From positions 1 to 64,000 of the forward strand of contig NZ_JAPVBH010000001.1 of assembly GCF_026967795.1 (NCBI RefSeq): a DNA stretch of 64,000 nucleotides, given 5' to 3'. Below, one piece after another: positions 26,172-37,208 of the stretch. Position 1 is the stretch's first letter. Each line of letters begins with the position of its first letter. The notes beneath the pieces were generated by a model. The model saw only the letters and a program-made list of their open reading frames with translations. It was not told where the DNA came from and ran no database searches. Origin of the DNA: Modestobacter sp. VKM Ac-2986 (lineage in GTDB: Bacteria; Actinomycetota; Actinomycetes; Mycobacteriales; Geodermatophilaceae). Made by a program: the position numbers and the translations under genes.

Positions 26172-27920
26172 ATGACCCGTTCCTCGTTGACGACACCCGG
26201 GGTGCCCGCCCCGCCGGTGCACACCGGCTGGACCTCCTGCCCGTCCTGCGGCTGGCTGCTCTACAACAAGCGGCTGGAGCGCAACCTGTACGTCTGCCCG
26301 GAGTGCGACCACCACCTGCGGCTGAGCGCCCGGGCCCGGATCGACATGCTCGTCGACGCCGGCAGCTTCACCGAGACCGACGCGGTCCGCGGCGACTCGG
26401 ACCCGCTCTGCTTCACCGACCTGCGCCCCTATGCCGACCGGCTCCGCGACGCCGCGCACCGCTCCGGTGAGTCCGAGGCGGTCCTGGTGGGCGAGGCGCG
26501 GATCGGCGGGACCCCGCTGGTGCTCGCCGTCATGGACTTCGGCTTCCTGGGCGGCAGCATGGGCGTCGAGGTGGGCCGGCGGGTGAGCGGGGCCGCGGCG
26601 CTGGCGCTGGCGCTGGGTCGACCGCTGGTGGTCGTCTGTGCCAGCGGTGGCGCCCGGATGCAGGAAGGCGTCTTCTCGCTGTTCCAGATGGCCCGTGCCA
26701 GCGAGGCCCTCGGACGTCTCCGCGAGGCCGGGCTGCTCTCGGTCTGCGTGCTCACCGACCCCACCTACGGCGGTGTGTCCGCCTCCTTCGCGACCCTCGC
26801 GTCGGTGCTCATCGGGGAACGCGGCGCCCACGTGGGCTTCGCCGGCCCGCGGGTGGTGCAGGAGACGATCCGCGCCGAGCTCCCCCGCGACTTCCAGACC
26901 TCGGAGTTCCTGCTCGCCCACGGGCTGGTGGACCGGGTCGAGAACCGGGCGGACCTGCGACCGGTGCTCATCCGGCTGCTCACCCTGCACGGCCAGGACG
27001 CAGCCGGCGTCCCGGCCGAGGACGCACCGGCCGACGGACCGGACCCCGTCCTCGCCGAGGTCGCCGGCCCGCCGCCGGCGGAGACCGACCCCTGGGACGT
27101 CGTCCAGCGGGCGCGGGTCGTCGAGCGGCCGACGACGCTGGACTACCTGCACACCGCCTTCGACGACTTCGTCGAGCTGCACGGCGACCGGGCCTTCGGC
27201 GACGACCCCGCCGTGGTGGGCGGGGTGGCCGCCATCGGGGGCCGGCCGGTCGTGGTGATCGGCCACGAGAAGGGGCACTCGGTCCGCGAGCGGGTGGCCC
27301 ACAACTTCGGGATGCCGCACCCGGAGGGCTACCGGAAGGCGCTGCGCCTGCTGGGGCACGCCGAGGCCCACCGGCTGCCGGTCGTCACCCTCGTCGACAC
27401 GCCGGGGGCGCACCCGGGGCCGGAGGCGGAGGAGCGCGGGCAGTCCCACGCGATCGCCGAGATCATCATGCGCAGCAGCCGGCTGCGGGTGCCCGTGGTC
27501 GCCGTGGTCACCGGCGAGGGCGGCAGCGGTGGCGCGCTGGCCCTGTGCACCTCCGACCGGCTGCTGGTCCTGGAGAACGCCTACCTGTCGGTCATCAGCC
27601 CGGAGGGGTGCGCGGCGATCCTCTGGCGGACGGCGGCGGCGGCCCCCGCCGCGGCGCGGGCCATGCAGCTGGGCGCCACCCACCTGTACCGGTCGGGCAT
27701 CGCCACCTCCGTCGTCCCCGAGCCACCGGGCGGCGCGCACACCGACCCGGTCGCGGCGGCGGACCTGCTCCGCGCAGCACTCGTCCGCGAGCTGGACGAG
27801 CTGTCCGGGACCGACGTGGACACCCTGCTGGCCGAACGGTCGCGCCGGTTGTCCGGCATGGACGGCCACGGCGGCCGCCGCGTGCGCTCGCTGCAGCCCG
27901 TCGTCCCGGCGGGGTGCTGA
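26172..27920 (+). CDS. accDA: Acetyl-CoA carboxylase carboxyltransferase, fused beta-alpha subunits (AccDA)
   Basis: A 582-residue carboxyltransferase. The AccD half begins with a four-Cys zinc ribbon (C23, C26, C42, C45: SCPSCG...VCPECDHH) and continues with GGSMGVEVGRR, CASGGARMQEG and LTDPTYGGVSASFA. The AccA half begins around residue 310 with TLDYLHTAFDDFVELHGDR and has VTLVDTPGAHPGPEAEERGQ and ISPEGCAAILWR. It transfers CO2 from carboxybiotin to acetyl-CoA, making malonyl-CoA. Fusion of the halves is typical of copies inside polyketide clusters rather than of the housekeeping enzyme. Confidence 0.93.
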   Translation: MTRSSLTTPGVPAPPVHTGWTSCPSCGWLLYNKRLERNLYVCPECDHHLRLSARARIDMLVDAGSFTETDAVRGDSDPLCFTDLRPYADRLRDAAHRSGESEAVLVGEARIGGTPLVLAVMDFGFLGGSMGVEVGRRVSGAAALALALGRPLVVVCASGGARMQEGVFSLFQMARASEALGRLREAGLLSVCVLTDPTYGGVSASFATLASVLIGERGAHVGFAGPRVVQETIRAELPRDFQTSEFLLAHGLVDRVENRADLRPVLIRLLTLHGQDAAGVPAEDAPADGPDPVLAEVAGPPPAETDPWDVVQRARVVERPTTLDYLHTAFDDFVELHGDRAFGDDPAVVGGVAAIGGRPVVVIGHEKGHSVRERVAHNFGMPHPEGYRKALRLLGHAEAHRLPVVTLVDTPGAHPGPEAEERGQSHAIAEIIMRSSRLRVPVVAVVTGEGGSGGALALCTSDRLLVLENAYLSVISPEGCAAILWRTAAAAPAAARAMQLGATHLYRSGIATSVVPEPPGGAHTDPVAAADLLRAALVRELDELSGTDVDTLLAERSRRLSGMDGHGGRRVRSLQPVVPAGC

Positions 27921-27922
27921 CC

Positions 27923-28450
27923 GTGCACCCGAGCGAGTTCGCCCCCCGGCCCGTGCTGAGCGGCGCCCCGGTGCCGGCGGACGACACGACCCGGTCGCTG
28001 AGCGAGGAGGTGGTCGAGCTCGCCCGCAGCCTGCCCGGTGACCTGCGCCGGCTCACCGTGCGCAGCGGTGACATCGCCATCGAGGTCGAGTGGGCGGCCG
28101 AGGACCGTCCCGCCGGCGAGGGCGGGCCTGCCCTGCGGAGCACCCCGGGTGGCCGGGACGTCCCGGCCGGGGCCGTCGCGCCCGCTGTCCCGGACGACGT
28201 GGTCGCCGTCACCGCACCCCTGGTCGGGACCTTCTACCTCGCCTCGGCACCGGACGCCGACCCGTTCGTCCGGGTCGGCGATGCCGTCGAACCCGGACAG
28301 ACGCTCGCGATCGTCGAGGCGATGAAGCTGATGAACCCGATCGTGGCCGACGAGGCGGGTGTCGTCACCGAGGTCCTGGCCGGGGACGCCGAGTCGGTGG
28401 AGTACGGGCAGGTCCTGATGTACCTCCGTCCGACGGGGGCGGCGCAGTGA
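27923..28450 (+). CDS. accB: Biotin carboxyl carrier protein (AccB)
   Basis: A 175-residue BCCP. The N-terminal region (VVELARSLPGDLRRLTVRSGDIAIEVEW) and Pro/Gly linker lead to a biotinyl domain with PLVGTFYLAS and the biotinylation motif VEAMKLMNPI (Lys of MKLM). GTG 27923 starts 2 bp after the accDA stop; GTG 27914, overlapping accDA, is an alternative. It overlaps the downstream accC by GTGA, so subunits should be made in matched amounts. Confidence 0.9.
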   Translation: MHPSEFAPRPVLSGAPVPADDTTRSLSEEVVELARSLPGDLRRLTVRSGDIAIEVEWAAEDRPAGEGGPALRSTPGGRDVPAGAVAPAVPDDVVAVTAPLVGTFYLASAPDADPFVRVGDAVEPGQTLAIVEAMKLMNPIVADEAGVVTEVLAGDAESVEYGQVLMYLRPTGAAQ

Positions 28451-30189
28451 TCAGCCGGCTGCTCATCGCCAACCGCGGCGAGATCGCCGTCCGGATCGCG
28501 CGCGCCTGCCGGGAGCTGGGCATCGAGGTCGTCGCCACCTACTCCACGTCCGACCGGCACTCCGCGGTGGTGGAGATGGCCGACGAGGCGGTGCACATCG
28601 GCCCGCCCGCCCCGCGGCACAGCTACCTGCACGTGCCCAACCTCATCGAGGCCGCGCTGCGCACCGGCGCGGACGCCGTCCACCCCGGCTACGGGTTCCT
28701 CTCCGAGGACCCGGACTTCGCCGAGATCTGCGACACGGAGGGGCTCACCTTCGTCGGTCCCCCGCCGGAGGTCATGCAGCAGATGGGCAACAAGGCCACG
28801 GCCCGCCGGCTGATGGCCGAGGCCGGCCTGCCGCTGCTGCCCGGTGTGGTCGAGCCGGTCCGGACGGCGGAGGAGGGGCTGGCGATCGCCGACGAGATCG
28901 GCTACCCGGTGATCATCAAGGCGGCCGCCGGGGGCGGTGGCCGCGGGATGACCGTCGTGTCGGCACCCGAGGAGTTCGCCGAGGCCTTCACCGCCACCCG
29001 GGCGGTCGCCCGCGCGGTGTTCCGCGACCCGGCCGTCTACGTGGAGCGCTACCTGACCGGCGCCCGCCACGTGGAGGTGCAGGTCCTCTGCGACGGGCAC
29101 GGCGCGGGGATCCACCTCGGCGAGCGCGACTGCTCGCTGCAGCGCCGCCACCAGAAGCTGCTCGAGGAGGGGCCGGCGGCCCACCTCTCCCCCGAGCGGC
29201 GCGCCGAGATCGGTGCCCTGGCGGTGCGCGGTGCGCTGTCGGTGGGGTTCACCGGCGCGGGGACCGTCGAGTTCCTCGTCGATGCCGCCGGCGCGTACTT
29301 CATGGAGATGAACGCCCGCATCCAGGTCGAGCACCCGGTCACCGAGGCACTCACCGGCGTCGACCTCGTCCGGGAGCAGCTGCTGGTCGCCGGCGGCCGC
29401 CGGCTCCAGCTGCAGCAGGAGGACGTCGTGACCCGGGGTGCGGCGATCGAGTGCCGGATCAACGCCGAGGACCCGGCCCGCGGGTTCGCCCCGGCCCCCG
29501 GCCACCTCGACGTCCTGCAGGTCCCCGGCGGGCCGTGGACCCGGTTCGACACCGGCTACCGGCAGGGCGACGACGTGAGCCCGCACTACGACTCGCTGCT
29601 GGGCAAGCTCGTCGTCTGGGCCCCCGACCGCGACCAGGCCGTCCGCCGGATGGACCGGGCGCTGGCCGAGCTGCGGGTCGAGGGCCCGGGCCTGCGCACC
29701 ACCATCGCCCTGCAGCGCGCGATGCTCCGGCACCCCGAGGTGCGCGCCGACCGGCACGACATCGAGTTCCTCGACCGCAGCCTGCCCGAGCTCCTGGCCT
29801 CCGCGGCTGCCCTGGCCGCGTCCCCGGCGACGCCCATGCCCGCCGCCCACGGTCCGCTCCAGCTCGTCCCCGCGCCGTCCGGCACCGACCGGCCGGGGTC
29901 GTCCCGTCCACCCACCGATGAAGGGAACACCGCCATGCCCGACAGCCCGTTCACCCTCGAGGACCTGATGGACCTGCTCGCCGCGAAGGCCGGGCTCCCG
30001 CCGGAGTCGCGCACCACCGACCCCGACGCCCACTTCGCCGACATCGGCCTGGACTCGCTCGCCTTCCTGTCCATGCAGACCGAGCTGCACGACCGCTTCG
30101 ACACCGAGATGCCCGACGACGACCCGGACCGCTACACGCTCGGCGAGATCGTCGCGACCGTCTCCTCGGCGCAGTCGCAGATGGCCTGA
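28447..30189 (+). CDS. Biotin carboxylase fused in frame to an acyl carrier protein (AccC-ACP)
   Basis: A continuous 580-codon frame with two functional parts. Residues 1-450 are biotin carboxylase: LLIANRGEIAVRIARACRE, the ATP-grasp loop IKAAAGGGGRGM, RDCSLQRRHQKLLEE, MEMNARIQVEHPVTE and AIECRINAED. A Pro/Ala-rich linker of about 46 residues follows. Residues 497-580 are a complete polyketide ACP with the phosphopantetheine Ser in FADIGLDSLAFL (S537). There is no stop codon between them. A ribosome-site-like GAAGGGA before the internal ATG 29935 means a free ACP may also be made. It supplies carboxybiotin to AccDA and carries the growing polyketide. Confidence 0.85.
   Translation: MISRLLIANRGEIAVRIARACRELGIEVVATYSTSDRHSAVVEMADEAVHIGPPAPRHSYLHVPNLIEAALRTGADAVHPGYGFLSEDPDFAEICDTEGLTFVGPPPEVMQQMGNKATARRLMAEAGLPLLPGVVEPVRTAEEGLAIADEIGYPVIIKAAAGGGGRGMTVVSAPEEFAEAFTATRAVARAVFRDPAVYVERYLTGARHVEVQVLCDGHGAGIHLGERDCSLQRRHQKLLEEGPAAHLSPERRAEIGALAVRGALSVGFTGAGTVEFLVDAAGAYFMEMNARIQVEHPVTEALTGVDLVREQLLVAGGRRLQLQQEDVVTRGAAIECRINAEDPARGFAPAPGHLDVLQVPGGPWTRFDTGYRQGDDVSPHYDSLLGKLVVWAPDRDQAVRRMDRALAELRVEGPGLRTTIALQRAMLRHPEVRADRHDIEFLDRSLPELLASAAALAASPATPMPAAHGPLQLVPAPSGTDRPGSSRPPTDEGNTAMPDSPFTLEDLMDLLAAKAGLPPESRTTDPDAHFADIGLDSLAFLSMQTELHDRFDTEMPDDDPDRYTLGEIVATVSSAQSQMA
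29924..29937 (+). promoter_or_regulatory. Internal ribosome site and ATG of the ACP part
   Basis: GAAGGGAAC followed by ATG 29935 inside the AccC-ACP frame. If used, it yields a separate 84-residue ACP (29935-30189) beginning MPDSPFTLEDLMDLL. This is either a relic of the gene fusion or a way to make ACP in excess over AccC. Confidence 0.5.
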
Positions 30190-30292: not shown

Positions 30293-30787
30293 GTGAGCAC
30301 CCTCGAGAACGACAGCCGCACCGTCGGCCACACCGACAACTCGATCCTCATCGACGCGGACATCGACCACGTCTGGCGGATGACCAACGACCTGCCGTCC
30401 TGGCCGGACCTCTTCACCGAGTACGCCGAGGTGGAGGTGCTGGCCCAGCACGGCTCGACGTTCCGCTTCCGGCTCAAGATGCACCCGGACGAGTCCGGCC
30501 GGGTGTGGAGCTGGGTCTCCGAGCGCACCCTCGACGAGGACGCGCACGTGGTCGTGGCCAAGCGGGTCGAGCCCGGCCCGTTCGAGTTCATGGACATCCG
30601 GTGGGACTACGCGCCGGAGGGCACCGGCACCCGGATGCGCTGGCAGCAGGACTTCCGGATGCGGCCGGAGGCGCCGATCGACACCGCCGGCATGACCGAG
30701 CGCATCGACGCCAACAGCAAGGTCCAGATGGCCGTGATCCGCGACAAGGTGGAGGCCGCCGCCCGGCGCGCGGAGCCGGCGACATGA
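30293..30787 (+). CDS. Polyketide aromatase/cyclase (SRPBCC, TcmN/WhiE-ORFVI type)
   Basis: A 164-residue START-fold protein that controls first-ring cyclisation and aromatisation of the polyketide chain. Family features include NSILIDADIDHVWRMTNDLPSWPDLFTEYAEVEV, RVWSWVSERTLDE and MRWQQDFRMRPEAPID. Being a single domain, it resembles the TcmN N-terminal domain and WhiE ORFVI rather than di-domain ActVII. GGAGG precedes GTG 30293. It overlaps the next gene by ATGA. Confidence 0.92.
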   Translation: MSTLENDSRTVGHTDNSILIDADIDHVWRMTNDLPSWPDLFTEYAEVEVLAQHGSTFRFRLKMHPDESGRVWSWVSERTLDEDAHVVVAKRVEPGPFEFMDIRWDYAPEGTGTRMRWQQDFRMRPEAPIDTAGMTERIDANSKVQMAVIRDKVEAAARRAEPAT

Positions 30788-31752
30788 CCGGCGGCGCGGG
30801 CGCCGCGGTCGTCCTCCCGGGCGAGTGCAGCGCCCGTCCCGGCGGCCTGGACGCCTGGCTCGTCGACGGGGTCGCCCGCGAGGTGGTGGCCGAGGCCTCC
30901 GACGTGCTCGGGCGCGACGTCGTCGCCTGGTGGGGCGACCCGCTCAACCTCTCCGACCCGCTGGCCGCGCACCTGGCGGCGCTGGTCACCGGGGTGGCGG
31001 GGTACCGCAGCCTGGTCGCGGCCGGCCTGCAGCCGGTCGTCGTGGCCGGTCACGGCGTCGGGGAGTGCGCTGCGCTGGTCGCCGCCGGCGCCCTGCCGCT
31101 GGAGCAGGTGGTGGCCTTCGTCGGCCTGCGTGCGGAGGCCCTCACGCACGCGCCGCGCCCCTCCTGGGCGGGCATGGCGGCCGTGGTCGGGCCGGGTGCC
31201 GAGGAGGTCGCCCGAGCGGTGGTGGCGTCCACCGGGGCGGACGGCGGGCTCTGCGTGGCGTCCCTCGACGGCCCGGCCCAGGTGGTGCTCTCCGGCCGTC
31301 GGGAACAGCTGGAGCAGGCCCGCGCAGCCGTCACCGCGGCCGGGCTGGACCTGGTCCGGCTGTGCGGGCGGGCGCCCTGCCACGGCCCACTGGTCCAGTC
31401 GGTCGCCGACCACCTCACCGCCGCGCTCACCGACCTGGACTGGTCGGTCCCGGTCGTCCCGGTGGTCCCCAACGCCGACGCGCAGCCGACCCGCGACCCC
31501 GGCCGGCTGGCCCGGTGCCTGCAGGCACAGCTGACCTCGCCGGTGCAGTGGGAGGCCACCTCGCACGCGCTCGTCGGCGCCGGGGCCACCTGGGTCGTCG
31601 AGGTGGGCTCCGTGCCCGTGCTCGGGCCCCTCGTCCGGCAGGTCCACCCGCGCCTGCCCCTGTACCTGGCCACCGGGCCCGGTGCGTCCACCCCCATCGC
31701 AGCCCCCGAACCCGCGCTGACGGGTCCGGCACCCACCGGAGGAGACAGATGA
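30784..31752 (+). CDS. FabD-like acyltransferase with missing catalytic serine
   Basis: A 322-residue protein with the malonyl-CoA:ACP acyltransferase fold. The nucleophile motif GHSxGE reads AGHGVGECAALVAAG, so G91 replaces the catalytic Ser (codon GGC, one base from AGC). The carboxylate-binding Arg is kept (VGLRAEAL, R116) and so is the second His (PCHGPLV, H200); these match S92, R117 and H201 of E. coli FabD. The N-terminal GQGSQ is degraded to PGECSARPGG. It cannot use the normal acyl-serine route; it may bind malonyl-ACP without transferring, act structurally, or be decaying. Start and stop overlap both neighbours, so it is translated in step with the synthase. Confidence 0.8.
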   Translation: MTGGAGAAVVLPGECSARPGGLDAWLVDGVAREVVAEASDVLGRDVVAWWGDPLNLSDPLAAHLAALVTGVAGYRSLVAAGLQPVVVAGHGVGECAALVAAGALPLEQVVAFVGLRAEALTHAPRPSWAGMAAVVGPGAEEVARAVVASTGADGGLCVASLDGPAQVVLSGRREQLEQARAAVTAAGLDLVRLCGRAPCHGPLVQSVADHLTAALTDLDWSVPVVPVVPNADAQPTRDPGRLARCLQAQLTSPVQWEATSHALVGAGATWVVEVGSVPVLGPLVRQVHPRLPLYLATGPGASTPIAAPEPALTGPAPTGGDR

Positions 31753-32180
31753 CGACGATCCAGCACCCCACGGCGCAGGTCCGCTGCGGGCCCACCGTGT
31801 CGCGGGCCGACACGGTCCCCAACCGCCGCCGCGGCGGTGACATCCGGGTGCTGCTGTCCCCCACCAGCGTGGGGGCCACCGCCGGGTTCCTGGGCACCCT
31901 GACCCTCGAGCCGGGGGAGGTCGTCACCGAGCACTGGCACCCCTACTCGGAGGAGTTCCTCTACTGCGTCTCCGGCGACGTGCTGGTGACCCTGGACGGC
32001 GAGGAGCGCCGGCTGGTCGGGGAGTCGGCGCTGCACGTCCCGATCGGGGTGCGGCACCGCATCGTCAACGACGGCGCGGCCACGGCCTTCTTCGTCTTCC
32101 TCGCCGGGCCGCTGGCCCCCCGGCCGGAGCTCGGCCACGTCGACACCGAGCCCTCCCCCGGCTCCATGGGCGTCCGGTGA
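31749..32180 (+). CDS. Cupin-domain protein (WhiE-ORFII type)
   Basis: A 143-residue single cupin. The metal-binding motif 1 is [16 protein letters not shown] (two His and Glu) and motif 2 is [13 protein letters not shown]. Cupins of this size accompany the KS genes in spore-pigment clusters (whiE ORFII) and are thought to assist folding or oxidation, but the reaction is not settled. ATG overlaps the acyltransferase-like stop; its own stop overlaps KS-alpha GTG. Confidence 0.85.
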
Positions 32181-33472
32181 GCGCCGACCGGCGCCGGGTC
32201 GTCATCACCGGCATCGGCGTGGTCGCGCCCGGGTCGATGGGCCGCGAGGGCTTCTGGGACATGATCACCGCCGGCCGGACGGCCACCCGGCGGATCACCT
32301 TCTTCGACCCCAGCCGCTTCCGGTCGCAGGTGGCGGCGGAGGTCGACTTCGACGGGCGCAAGCTCGGGCTCACCGCCCACGAGGTGCACCGCAACGACCG
32401 GTTCGTGCAGATGGCCATGGTGGCCGCCGACGAGGCCGTCGCGGACAGCGGGCTGACCCTCGGTGCCGGCGGCGCCGACGACGCCCCGGACCCCGACCGG
32501 GTCGGCGTGACCCTGGGGAGCGCGGTCGGGGCGACCATGCGGCTGGAGAACGAGTACGTCGCGGTCAGCGACGCGGGGACGCACTGGCTGGTCGACCCCC
32601 GGTACGCCTCGCGGTTCCTGCACCAGGCCCTGGTGCCCAGCTGCGGGGCCACGGAGCTCGCGGTGCGCTTCGGCGCCCACGGTCCGGCCACCGTGGTCTC
32701 CACCGGCTGCACCTCGGGCATCGACGCGGTCGGCTACGGCGCCCAGTTGATCGAGGACGGCGACGCCGACGTGGTCATCGCCGGTGCCAGCGACGCGCCG
32801 ATCTCGCCGATCTCGATGGCCTGCTTCGACACCATCCGGGCCACCACGGCCAACAACGCCGACCCCGAGCACGCCTCCAAGCCCTTCGACGCCCGCCGGG
32901 ACGGCTTCGTCATGGGCGAGGGCGCCGCCGTCCTGGTGCTGGAGGAGCTCGGACACGCACGGCAGCGCGGCGCGGAGGTCTACTGCGAGGTCAGCGGCTA
33001 CGCCAACCGCTGCAACGCCTTCCACATGACCGGGCTGCGCCCCGACGGCATCGAGATGGCCGAGGCCATCGGGCTGGCGCTGGACCAGGGCCGGATCGAC
33101 CCGGACGAGGTGGGCTACGTCAACGCCCACGGCTCGGGCACCAAGCAGAACGACCGCCACGAGACCGCCGCGGTGAAGCGCAGCCTCGGCCCGGCCGCCC
33201 AGCAGGTGTCGATGAGCTCGATCAAGTCGATGGTCGGCCACTCGCTCGGCGCGATCGGGTCGATCGAGATCGCGGCGACCGCCCTGGCGGTCAAGCGCGG
33301 TGTGGTGCCGCCGACGGCCAACTACGGGGTGCCCGACCCGGAGTGCGACCTGGACTACGTGCCCAACACCGCCCGCGAGCAGAAGGTGGACGTCGCCCTG
33401 TCGGTGGGCAGCGGCTTCGGCGGCTTCCAGTCGGCCATCGTGCTGGCGTCCCCGACGAGGAGGACCGCATGA
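32177..33472 (+). CDS. Type II polyketide ketosynthase alpha (KS-alpha)
   Basis: A 431-residue beta-ketoacyl synthase that condenses malonyl units. The triad is complete: C178 in [12 protein letters not shown]318 in [12 protein letters not shown] and H355 in MVGHSLGA. The opening [15 protein letters not shown] and [15 protein letters not shown] are typical. It partners with the next gene to form the KS-CLF heterodimer and takes extender units from the ACP fused to AccC. The sequence flavour ([27 protein letters not shown]) is closest in my reading to spore-pigment KS enzymes. Confidence 0.95.
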
Positions 33473-34710
33473 CCGGGCTGCTGGTCACCGGGATCGGCGT
33501 CGTCGCGCCCACCGGCGTCGGCGTCGAGGCGCACTGGTCCTCACTCCTCCGCGGGGAGCCGGCCATCCGGCCGATCGAGGGCTTCGACACCGAGCAGTAC
33601 GGGGTGACGCTCGCCGGGCAGGTGCGCGACTTCGACCCCAAGGAGTTCGTGGCACCGCAGCTGATGGTGCAGACCGACCGCTGGACCTGGACGTCCCTGG
33701 CGGCCGCCACCCTGGCCGCGCAGGACGCGGGCTACGAGGCCCCCGAGGACGCCTACGCGACCTCGGTGTTCCTGGCCGCCGGGTCCGGCGGCAACGAGTT
33801 CAGCCAGCACGAGATCCAGGGGCTGTGGGCCAAGGGACCCAAGTCGGTCGGCGCCTACCAGTCGATCGCCTGGTTCTACGCCGCCAGCACCGGCCAGCTC
33901 TCCATCCGCGACGGCTACAAGGGCCCCTCGGGCGTCGTGGTGAGCGAGGGTGCCGGCGGCCTGGACAGCATCGGCTGGGCCCGCCGGGTGGCGCGCCGCG
34001 GCACGCCCGCCGTCCTGGTCGGGGGCACCGAGGCCGGGGTGACGCCGTACGCGCTGCTCTGCCAGGCGACCAGCGGCCGGCTGTCGACGGCCACCCGGCC
34101 CGAGGACGCCTACAAGCCCTTCGACCGCCGGGCGAACGGGCACGTCATCGGCGAGGGCGGCGCGATCCTGCTGCTGGAGGAGCCCGGCGCCGCCCGGGCA
34201 CGGGGCGCCCAGCACGTCTGGGGTGAGGTCGCCGGCTACGGCGCCACGCACGACGCCCACCACCACGAGGACCCCGCACCCGACGCCACCCAGTACGCCC
34301 GGGCGATCCGGATCGCGCTGGCCGACGCCGGGATCACCCCGGACGACGTGGACCTGGTCCTCGCCGACGGGGCCGGGCTGCCGGAGCTGGACGCGCTGGA
34401 GCTGGAGGCGCTCCAGCGGGTGTTCGGCGGGCGGGCCACGCCGGTGCCGGTGACGGCGCCGTCGTCCTGGACCGGGCGGCTGATGGCCGGCGGCTCGGCG
34501 CTCAACGTGGCGACCGCGCTGCTGGCGATCCGGGACGGCATCGTGCCCGGCACCGCGCACCTCGACGACCCGGTGGACGCGCCGGGCGTGGACCTCGTGC
34601 AGCAGAGCCGGGTGCAGGACGTGCGGACCGTCGTCGTCCTGGCCCGGGGCTTCGGGGGCTTCAACAGCAGCCTGGTGCTGCGCCGACACCAGCCAGAGGG
34701 GACGTCATGA
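33469..34710 (+). CDS. Ketosynthase beta / chain-length factor (KS-beta, CLF)
   Basis: A 413-residue KS homologue lacking the catalytic Cys, overlapping KS-alpha by ATGA as usual. The former active-site region reads [16 protein letters not shown]161 stands where actinorhodin-type CLFs carry Gln (EQAGGLD). That Gln has been linked to malonyl decarboxylation for priming, so priming may work differently here. The rest is typical ([30 protein letters not shown]). It is expected to set chain length together with KS-alpha. Confidence 0.92.
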
Positions 34711-37208
34711 CGACGGTGCAGGACACGACCGCCACCGGGCAGGACACGGCCGGGCAGGACACGACCGGACAGGACACGGCCGGGCCGGGTGGGGCGGTCC
34801 GCACGCTGCTGCGGATGCGCGTCCGCGAGGGCTGCGAGGAGCGGTTCGAGGAGGCGTGGCGCACCGCCGCGGTCGCCATCGCCGGGGAGCCGGGCAACGT
34901 CCGGCAGGAGCTGATGCGCGACGCCGACGACCCGCGCACCTTCCTGATCGCCGGCGACTGGGCCGACCGGGCGGCCGCGGACGCCTTCGGCCGTTCCAGC
35001 GCCCGCGAGGCACTGACCGCGGCCATGCGGGACCTGCGCGAGGACGCCGACCGCAGCACCTACGAGCTGCGCTACGGCATCGCCGGCGGGGAGCAGGCCG
35101 CCCACGTCCGCATCGACATCAGCACCCGGGTCGGTGAGGGCGAGGAGGAGGCGTTCGAGCGCGCGTACGCCGTGGTCGCCGGACGCCTGCAGGGGACGCC
35201 GGGGCTGATCCGGGAGGAGCTGCTCCGTGAACCCGGCACGGGGCTGTACCACATCTTCGCCGAGTGGGAGTCCGACCAGGACTTCCGCAACTGGGTCGAC
35301 GACCCCTCGCACGCCGACCGGACCGGCCCGATCATCCGGTGGCTGTCGGTGTTCTTCGAGCGGAAGCTCTACGAGATCCGGCACCGGCCACCGGAGGCCG
35401 GCGTCCGCGGCGTCGGGGGCGTCCTGAGGACCGCGACCGAGCGGGCCGTCCCCGTACCGGCTCCCGTCGCACCGGCACCCCGGACCCCGGTGCCGGTCGC
35501 GGCCGCCCCCGCCCCTCCGCGGGCCGCAGCGGCCGTCGCGACCCCACCGGCCGCCGAGGTGCTCGTCGTCGGCGCCGGGCCGACCGGGCTGACCGCCGCG
35601 ATCGAGCTGGCCCGGCGGGGGATCGCCGTCCGGGTGGTCGACCGGCGCAGCGAGGCGTCCGCCCAGGCGGACAAGGCGATCGGCGTCCACTGCCGCACGA
35701 TGGAGATCTGGGAGGACCAGGGCATCGTGACCGAGGCGATGGACGTCGGCACGTGGCTGCACGGCCAGACGGTGTTCGTGAACGGCAAGCGGACCCACCA
35801 GGTGGACTGGTCCGGGCTGGAGGAGCTGCCCTTCGCCCACCTCGGGCTGCCGCAGTACGAGACCGAGCGGCTGCTGGGCGCGAAGCTGGCGTCGCTGGGG
35901 GTCCGGGTGGAGCGCGGCGTCGAGCTGCGCGGCTTCCTGCAGGACGACCAGGGGGTGACCGCCCAGCTGGAGCACCCCGGCGGCCGGGCCGGGACCGTGC
36001 GGGCGCAGTACCTGATCGGGGCCGACGGTGCCGGCAGCGCGGTCCGCGAGCAGCTCGGGCTCACCTTCGAGGGCGGCCTGTCGATGTTCCCCCAGCTGTT
36101 CATGCTCGGCGACGTCGACGTCGACTGGGGCACCGGGGCGGAGGAGGTGCCGGCCGGCCACCTGGTGCGCTGGGTCCGGATCGAGGAGGACGGCGACTTC
36201 ACCGGGATGCTGGTCTGCGTGCCGCTCGCCGGCCGCAACCGCTACCGGGTCGCGACGCTGGCCCCCCAGCGGCTCCAGCAGACCATCGGGTCCGGCGTCG
36301 TGCCGCCCGGGTTCTGGAAGGAGTACGACCCGCCCGGCCTCGCCGACATCCAGGCCGCGATCGACGACCTCGGTCCGGCGGGCACGACCGCGACCGACCT
36401 GCGCTGGTCGTCGGTCTTCCGGGTCAAGCACGGCATCGTCGACCGCTACTCCGACGGCCGGGTGTTCGTCGCCGGCGACGCCGCGCACCTGCACCCGCCG
36501 GCGGGCGGGCAGGGCATGAACACCGGCATCCAGGACGCCTGGAACCTGGGGTGGAAGCTGGCGCTCGCCGTCCGGGGACTGGCCGCCCCCGGGCTGCTGG
36601 ACAGCTACGACACCGAGCGGCGCCCGGCGGGCAAGGCGATCGTCGACCGGGCCGTCGCCGTCGCGTTCACCGACGAGATGGACATGGACGACGAGCGGGA
36701 GCAGTTCCTGCTCGAGATGCAGATGACCATGAACTACGCGGACAGCCCGTTGGTCGCGGAGGTCACCGACGGCACGGCCTTCACCGGTGGTCCACTGCCC
36801 GGCCACCGGGCGCCGGACGTGCTGGGACTGCGCCGGTTCGGTGTCGCTCACGACCTGCGGTTGTTCGACCTGACCCGGGGCACCGCGGCCACCCTGCTGA
36901 TGTACGCCGGGTCCGGCGTGGACGCGGAGCAGCTGGCCGCGCTGGAGGAGCTGGCCGGGTCGGTGCGCCGGTCGACCGGCGGTCAGGTGCGCCCGTACCT
37001 GGTCGCCGCGCCGGACACCGTCGTCCCGCCGCTGGTCGACCTGCCGGTCGTCCGCGACGCACGGGGCGGCTTCGCCGCCGCCTACGGTGTCGCGGGCCCG
37101 GGGACGGCGGCCTACCTGGTGCGACCCGACGGGCACGTCGGCCTGCGCACCCGGCCGGTGTCCGACCACGCCGTCCGGGCGCACCTCATGGAGGTCTTCT
37201 CCGGGTGA
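34707..37208 (+). CDS. Tri-domain polyketide oxygenase: ABM-ABM-FAD monooxygenase
   Basis: An 833-residue fusion. After a short repeat tail (GQDTAGQDTTGQDTAG) come two antibiotic-biosynthesis-monooxygenase (ABM) ferredoxin-like domains, about 31-120 and 131-225. A Pro/Ala linker (226-283) leads to a PheA/TfdB-type FAD hydroxylase with VLVVGAGPTGLTAAIELARRG (286-306), a DG motif (LIGADGAGSAVR), GDAAHLHPPAGGQGMNTGI and a C-terminal thioredoxin-like region. FAD enzymes hydroxylate the aromatic product (WhiE-ORFVIII, TcmG) and ABM enzymes oxidise anthrones to quinones (TcmH, ActVA-6); here both are on one chain. It is the last gene of the operon, overlapping CLF by ATGA. Confidence 0.9.
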   Translation: MTTVQDTTATGQDTAGQDTTGQDTAGPGGAVRTLLRMRVREGCEERFEEAWRTAAVAIAGEPGNVRQELMRDADDPRTFLIAGDWADRAAADAFGRSSAREALTAAMRDLREDADRSTYELRYGIAGGEQAAHVRIDISTRVGEGEEEAFERAYAVVAGRLQGTPGLIREELLREPGTGLYHIFAEWESDQDFRNWVDDPSHADRTGPIIRWLSVFFERKLYEIRHRPPEAGVRGVGGVLRTATERAVPVPAPVAPAPRTPVPVAAAPAPPRAAAAVATPPAAEVLVVGAGPTGLTAAIELARRGIAVRVVDRRSEASAQADKAIGVHCRTMEIWEDQGIVTEAMDVGTWLHGQTVFVNGKRTHQVDWSGLEELPFAHLGLPQYETERLLGAKLASLGVRVERGVELRGFLQDDQGVTAQLEHPGGRAGTVRAQYLIGADGAGSAVREQLGLTFEGGLSMFPQLFMLGDVDVDWGTGAEEVPAGHLVRWVRIEEDGDFTGMLVCVPLAGRNRYRVATLAPQRLQQTIGSGVVPPGFWKEYDPPGLADIQAAIDDLGPAGTTATDLRWSSVFRVKHGIVDRYSDGRVFVAGDAAHLHPPAGGQGMNTGIQDAWNLGWKLALAVRGLAAPGLLDSYDTERRPAGKAIVDRAVAVAFTDEMDMDDEREQFLLEMQMTMNYADSPLVAEVTDGTAFTGGPLPGHRAPDVLGLRRFGVAHDLRLFDLTRGTAATLLMYAGSGVDAEQLAALEELAGSVRRSTGGQVRPYLVAAPDTVVPPLVDLPVVRDARGGFAAAYGVAGPGTAAYLVRPDGHVGLRTRPVSDHAVRAHLMEVFSG

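What the first reader, a model, noticed from the sequence alone, without database searches (positions are those of the whole stretch)
28447..30189. Biotin carboxylase fused to the polyketide ACP in one frame
The accC frame runs without a stop through a ~46-residue Pro/Ala linker into a complete ACP with its phosphopantetheine serine (DIGLDSLAFL). Both parts look intact. A fusion would tether the enzyme that starts malonyl-CoA synthesis to the carrier that consumes it, a form of substrate channelling I have not seen described for type II polyketide synthases. An internal ribosome site before ATG 29935 could also give free ACP, so two forms from one gene are possible.
Basis: partly seen in the sequence, partly recalled or inferred. 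Interest (0 to 1): 0.8.

Follow-up and report, generated by a model that had tools for sequence, protein, structure and literature searches.

The report
Biotin carboxylase fused to polyketide carrier
In several genera of one actinobacterial family, a gene for an enzyme of malonyl-CoA synthesis reads without a stop into the gene for the polyketide carrier protein, whose own start signal is kept, so one gene probably yields both a fused and a free carrier.

Summary
AccC (GTG 28447) reads without a stop into a complete acyl carrier protein (ACP) ending at 30189 (580 aa). It is not a sequencing error: of 112 family genomes searched, 35 have the locus at E at most 1e-170; in 16 of 35, in five genera, accC and ACP share one frame, in 19 of 35 they are separate overlapping frames, and the third register occurs in none. 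All 16 fused genes keep a Shine-Dalgarno sequence and ATG/GTG at the ACP start. The best-matching outgroup (G249) and many order-level relatives have the same gene order with separate genes, often sharing ATGA. The fusion probably arose from such a coupled overlap and was undone twice, though the rooting is weak. One apparently independent fused case (G356) also has an internal start. I read it as a dual-output gene: AccC-ACP plus free ACP. Substrate channelling is untested and weakened by the unfused operons; free-ACP initiation is also untested, and predicted mRNA pairing at its Shine-Dalgarno is slightly stronger in fused loci. Side finding: the operon's acyltransferase-like protein has Gly at the catalytic Ser in 33 of 34 loci. 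No protein was measured.

The parts
26172..27920 (+). accDA: fused carboxyltransferase beta-alpha subunit (Zn ribbon, Carboxyl_trans, ACCA)
   Evidence: Pfam; NCBIfam TIGR00513 above cut-off
27950..28450 (+). BCCP (biotin carboxyl carrier protein), AMKLM biotin motif; start not determined, coordinates are those of the piece I searched with; stop overlaps the accC GTG (GTGA)
28447..30189 (+). accC-ACP single reading frame, 580 aa
28447..29781 (+). AccC (biotin carboxylase) body, residues 1-445
   Evidence: Pfam/NCBIfam; active-site residues
29782..29934 (+). linker, residues 446-496, with an LPA..GPLQLVPAP-type motif shared by most fused and unfused relatives (unclear in G096 and G097)
   Evidence: low pLDDT
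29919..29934 (+). Shine-Dalgarno region (TGAAGGGAACACCGCC) before the internal ACP start
29935..30189 (+). ACP with its own ATG; phosphopantetheine Ser is Ser537 of the fusion (GLDSLAFL)
   Evidence: PF00550; conserved start
30293..30787 (+). polyketide cyclase (Polyketide_cyc, Polyketide_cyc2)
30784..31752 (+). acyltransferase-like (Acyl_transf_1) protein with Gly in place of the catalytic Ser (GHGVGE)
31749..32180 (+). cupin protein
32177..33472 (+). ketosynthase KS-alpha with active-site Cys motif
33469..34710 (+). chain length factor (KS-beta)
34707..37208 (+). ABM plus FAD-dependent monooxygenase in one frame

Best explanation
A dual-output gene formed by loss of the stop at a translationally coupled gene junction in a type II polyketide operon (accDA-BCCP-accC-ACP-cyclase-AT-cupin-KS-CLF). 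Inferred history: two separate genes overlapping at ATGA; a register change in the accC tail put accC in frame with ACP; two later register changes separated them again in two clades. Inferred working: every ribosome that finishes AccC also makes a C-terminal ACP on a flexible linker, so AccC exists as AccC-ACP, while ribosomes that start at the kept internal site make free 9-kDa ACP for the polyketide synthase. Shown by sequence: the single frame, its presence in 16 of 35 loci, the kept internal start, the syntenic unfused relatives. Inferred: that both proteins are made, that both are phosphopantetheinylated, and which one works with KS-CLF.
For: Single frame in 16 of 35 family loci, five genera. 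Start codon plus Shine-Dalgarno at the ACP start in 16 of 16 fused genes (15 ATG, 1 GTG); predicted anti-SD binding there is matched by 21 of 421 in-frame ATG/GTG codons in the AccC bodies of the same 16 genomes, 0 to 4 per genome. Outgroup G249 has the same gene order with an ATGA overlap; of all 43 places outside the family listed, 36 have an ACP right after accC and 35 of these are separate ORFs, 23 by ATGA. The fused/separate label needs 2 changes on the operon tree, 3 with G249 counted as separate. 11 of 13 inferred length changes between the tail motif and the ACP start are multiples of three (14 of 16 when measured from the end of the AccC body). In the window's genome, of 4 PP-binding matches this is the only one apart from a 111-aa frame beside an acyltransferase on C8 and two in frames of about 900 aa on C11. 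G356 has an apparently independent AccC-ACP frame, also with GAGGAG and ATG at the ACP start.
Against: No transcript or protein data. The linker is weakly constrained (pN/pS 0.76 and 0.69 in two fused clades against 0.13 and 0.15 in the AccC body), so the fused form may be tolerated rather than used. The outgroup branch is long and the first branches differ between the two trees that have outgroups, so gain-then-loss against repeated gain is not settled. In the Shine-Dalgarno test the ACP start was the best of 1 or 2 candidates in each fused locus, the control codons were not chosen so, and genomes are not independent. In the length-change count, ties were broken towards multiples of three and the tree was rooted on G124 by my choice.
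Confidence: 0.7

Rival explanations
1. Tolerated read-through (an answer to what the fused form is for, not exclusive of the dual-output reading): the fusion is a near-neutral by-product of drift at an overlapping junction in very GC-rich DNA, where stops are rare. Only free ACP from the internal start matters, and the ACP on AccC is idle.
For: 19 of 35 loci do without it; weakly constrained linker; the separate state arose at least once, probably twice, with the operon kept.
Against: The single frame is kept in five genera and only 2 of 13 inferred length changes altered the register. A similar fusion exists in G356.
Confidence: 0.4
2. Functional tether: AccC-ACP keeps a carrier at the carboxylase complex so that locally made malonyl-CoA is loaded with little loss.
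For: The operon carries a complete carboxylase set beside KS and CLF; low-confidence, apparently flexible linker in the model; similar fusion in G356.
Against: AccC does not handle malonyl-CoA (recalled). The operon's own acyltransferase-like protein lacks the catalytic Ser in 33 of 34 loci. 19 of 35 loci are unfused.
Confidence: 0.15
3. Only the fusion is made and the internal start is a relic.
For: No stop before the ACP in the 16 fused loci; Shine-Dalgarno stretch predicted to be more paired in fused loci.
Against: Shine-Dalgarno and start kept in 16 of 16 fused genes although the linker around them changes.
Confidence: 0.08
4. Sequencing or assembly error in the window.
For: Weak codon-position signal over 29866-29940; the unfused same-genus relatives differ by one register.
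Against: Same frame in 15 further genomes, one of which I equate with a named public record.
Confidence: 0.01

Closest known systems
Acetyl-CoA carboxylase biotin carboxylase subunit (AccC; NCBIfam PRK08591 / TIGR00514)
   Same: Residues 2-446 match PRK08591 above its cut-off (604 against 597 bits); solved AccC structures match over about residues 2-446.
   Different: Below the TIGR00514 equivalog cut-off (589.1 against 626.5); carries a 51-residue tail and an ACP. In the solved structures shown (60 of 85) no match reaches into the ACP part.
Type II polyketide ACP (for example actinorhodin ACP, 2k0x)
   Same: PP-binding match and DSL Ser; actinorhodin ACP is among the matches.
   Different: Normally a free protein of about 9 kDa (recalled); here it is also the C-terminus of AccC. 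The sequence match to 2k0x is weak (E 7e-4).
Unfused syntenic operons (G249; many order-level genomes) and the Pseudonocardia plasmid pBCI1-2
   Same: accDA-BCCP-accC near KS, CLF and ACP.
   Different: ACP is a separate ORF; on the Pseudonocardia plasmid it lies before accD.
In-frame genes with internal translation starts, and BC-BCCP fusions of actinobacteria (both recalled)
   Same: One frame, two products; fusion of a carboxylase part with a carrier domain.
   Different: The carrier here is a phosphopantetheine ACP of another pathway step, not a biotin carrier.

Membership tests
AccC biotin carboxylase | Biotin_carb_N, CPSase_L_D2 (ATP-grasp) and Biotin_carb_C domains | tested here: met
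   above cut-off
AccC biotin carboxylase | Active-site residues (11 positions; list recalled from E. coli AccC) | tested here: met
   all 11 present
AccC biotin carboxylase | TIGR00514 equivalog cut-off | tested here: not met
   589.1 against 626.5 bits; the subfamily model PRK08591 is met
AccC biotin carboxylase | Biotin carboxylation activity | not testable with these tools
   no assay
Type II PKS operon | KS-alpha with active-site Cys, and CLF without it | tested here: met
   KS Cys motif in 35 of 35; CLF has Gly (33), Ala (1) or Ser (1) at that place
Type II PKS operon | Discrete, free ACP | tested here: inconclusive
   an own start and Shine-Dalgarno are kept, but the frame is fused to accC
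Type II PKS ACP | PP-binding domain with DSL Ser | tested here: met
   PF00550 36.1 bits against cut-off 20.8
Dual-start gene | Conserved internal Shine-Dalgarno and start | tested here: met
   16 of 16 fused loci
Dual-start gene | Two proteins detected | not testable with these tools
   no proteomics
Substrate-channelling enzyme | Faster or more retained transfer when fused | not testable with these tools
   no assay

The most novel reading that the evidence does not exclude
AccC-ACP is the core of a malonyl-supply complex for one polyketide synthase: the tethered ACP is held at the carboxylase, the operon's acyltransferase-like protein that lost its catalytic Ser acts as a binding scaffold rather than an enzyme, and free ACP made from the internal start of the same gene carries the growing chain, so one gene sets the ratio of loading carrier to elongating carrier.
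Probability: 0.1. Interest if true: 0.85.

Novelty: new variant of a known kind. Interest (0 to 1): 0.52.

Why it matters
It is a natural series of one gene junction in two registers (overlap and fusion) across 35 related operons, so the cost and benefit of tethering a carrier protein to a carboxylase can be tested by comparing close relatives. It also suggests that annotation by longest ORF may hide the ACP of these polyketide operons inside AccC, so that the operon looks as if it had no ACP (inference; no annotation of a fused locus was read).

Tried and rejected
Sequencing error, or a lost stop in this strain only: rejected, same frame in 15 other genomes. A second type II ACP elsewhere in the genome: none seen among 4 PP-binding matches. 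mRNA structure at the internal start: fused loci have a somewhat more paired Shine-Dalgarno stretch than separate ones; this runs against free ACP and is kept as evidence against. AlphaFold model: ACP part about 70-89 pLDDT by blocks, linker 23-33, mean 47.3; the AccC part is poor, probably because only 10 sequences were aligned, so no fold search was run. Fusions outside the family: in samples drawn from class and phylum (394 and 396 genomes, E at most 1e-190, 3 candidates scored per genome) the only match besides the window's was G915, over residues 1-447; these limits would miss distant fusions such as G356, which was found only by reading order-level loci. In the plasmid collection 0 of 1224 matching records cover 80% of the query. 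The family search scored at most 12 candidates per genome and the order search 3, so loci may have been missed. Papers: ten searches; no listed title or abstract start speaks of an AccC-ACP fusion. I saw only these listings, plus three passages of PMC3848822. The library lacks most subscription journals.

First attempts that were wrong: one search did not turn minus-strand loci and is superseded. In one search a motif pattern missed the ACP of eight fused loci, although the printed translations show it, and took a wrong anchor for G059. One search stopped on an error after 33 of 35 loci; searches cover all 35. In one search G411 was flagged fused because of a Gly-Ser repeat; one search corrects it.

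Full report
What is there. The frame that begins at GTG 28447 runs to TGA 30189 without a stop. It holds a complete biotin carboxylase (residues 1-445), a Pro/Ala-rich linker (446-496) and a complete ACP with its Ser. The BCCP stop overlaps the accC GTG, and the junctions cyclase-AT, AT-cupin, cupin-KS, KS-CLF and CLF-monooxygenase are ATGA or GTGA overlaps too. At the accC-ACP junction the stop is missing; between ACP and cyclase there is a gap of about 100 bases.

Setting. The operon is accDA, BCCP, accC-ACP, cyclase, an acyltransferase-like gene, cupin, KS-alpha, CLF, and an ABM/FAD monooxygenase. Matches to accDA, BCCP, accC, ACP, cyclase, cupin, KS and CLF lie in this order in 35 of 35 family loci. 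The genome has a second AccC, 50% identical, and 4 PP-binding matches: this one, one in a 111-aa frame about 1.4 kb from the genome's other acyltransferase match on C8, which I take for the fatty-acid ACP, and two in frames of about 900 aa on C11. So the fused gene is the operon's only evident ACP source.

Relatives. Of 23 genomes searched in the genus, 12 have the locus at E at most 1e-170; of 112 in the family, 35. In these 35 the distance from the AccC body to the ACP start is a multiple of three in 16 and leaves remainder 2 in 19; remainder 1 occurs in none. In the 19, the accC frame stops at the ACP start in 3 (two ATGA, one TGATG), 16 bases inside in 1, and in 15 at a TGA formed by ACP codons about 31-61 bases inside: CTG-ATG in 7, ATG followed by A in 8. 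In the unseen third register the next stop would lie beyond the ACP end in 30 of 35 loci, inside the ACP in 1, and before the ACP start in 4, all four fused. A long out-of-frame overlap may explain why that register is not seen, but not for those four; this is inference.

Internal start. All 16 fused genes keep ATG (15) or GTG (1) at the ACP start with a Shine-Dalgarno sequence before it. Predicted binding to the anti-Shine-Dalgarno is as strong at 21 of 421 in-frame ATG/GTG codons of the AccC bodies in the same genomes, 0 to 4 per genome; the ACP start was the best of 1 or 2 candidates, the controls were single codons. A fused protein alone would not need this site.

History. On trees of the AccC body and of six concatenated proteins the label fused/separate needs 2 changes (2 to 3 over bootstrap trees); with G249, which has an ATGA overlap, counted as separate, it needs 3. 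In the two trees with outgroups the first branches within the family are fused, but they are G124 and G123 in one and G096 and G097 in the other, with modest support (84/81 and 86/90; 87/82 and 94/100), and the outgroup branch is long and was flagged by the program. The tree was rooted on G124 by choice and says nothing on the root. One gain and two losses is thus preferred, not proven. Between a tail motif and the ACP start, parsimony infers 13 length changes, 11 of them multiples of three; from the end of the AccC body, 16 changes, 14 of them multiples of three (P = 0.0002 for 11 of 13 if one third were expected). Ties were broken slightly towards multiples of three, the tail motif is uncertain in G096 and G097, and changes on branches that stay fused must be multiples of three by definition, so the weight lies on there being only two others. 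Substitutions in the linker are weakly constrained (pN/pS 0.63-0.87 in four clades, fused and separate alike, 26 of 35 loci; AccC body 0.13-0.19); the ACP itself shows 0.30, 0.50, 0.75 and 0.77.

Beyond the family. At order level 397 genomes were searched and 72 matched at E at most 1e-170. I read all 43 listed places outside the family: 36 have an ACP right after accC, of which 23 share ATGA, 2 share TGATG, 9 have a short gap, 1 has a long out-of-frame overlap (G155) and 1 is fused (G356); 7 have no ACP found directly after accC. G356 is a different kind of operon (its matching KS gene lies on the other strand), its ACP is 28% identical to the window's over the matched part and its linker is short, so it is most simply an independent fusion. 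It too has GAGGAG and ATG at the ACP start. Its genus holds no other searched genome.

Reading. The best-supported mechanism is a dual-output gene: AccC-ACP by completing the frame, free ACP by internal initiation. Shown are the frame, the kept start and the comparative pattern; the proteins, their modification and their use are inferred. Whether the tether helps is open: I give tolerated read-through 0.4 and useful tether 0.15; these answer what the fused form is for and do not exclude the dual-output reading. The operon's own acyltransferase-like protein has Gly at the catalytic Ser in 33 of 34 loci and Glu at the GQG glutamine in 32 of 34, with G096 alone keeping Ser; the catalytic His column is His in 32 of 34. 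One locus, G101, has no match. The loading enzyme is therefore more likely the one on C8, which keeps GHSVGE.

Compared with what is known. The parts belong to known families; the join is not named in any title or abstract start that ten searches of the held open library listed. Carboxylase genes inside type II PKS clusters are seen in annotated records, for example a Pseudonocardia plasmid where the ACP is a separate gene before accD. I rate it a new variant of a known kind.

Noticed in passing
window 30784-31752 (+) and 34 of 35 family loci: Acyltransferase-like (Acyl_transf_1) protein in the operon with Gly at the catalytic Ser in 33 of 34 loci and Glu at the GQG glutamine in 32 of 34, yet conserved; no match in 7 of 7 outgroup loci tested, some of them short.
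   Followed up: partly
window 33469-34710: The chain length factor has Gly at the position of the ketosynthase Cys in 33 of 35 loci (Ala 1, Ser 1), where Gln is usual in described factors (recalled).
   Followed up: partly
L179 / L214 (G356): Apparently independent AccC-ACP single frame of 534 aa in another family of the order, with its own internal Shine-Dalgarno and ATG.
   Followed up: partly
L209 (G155): accC frame runs on for 867 codons, overlapping ACP and the following DNA out of frame by 1118 bases; whether real or an assembly error was not checked.
   Followed up: no
L187, L195, L202 and other order-level loci: AccC tails are long, low-complexity and very variable (total 457 to 620 aa in the separate loci with an ACP, G155 aside), yet many still end in an ATGA overlap with the ACP.
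   Followed up: no
window 34707-37208: ABM domains and an FAD-dependent monooxygenase in one 833-aa frame.
   Followed up: no
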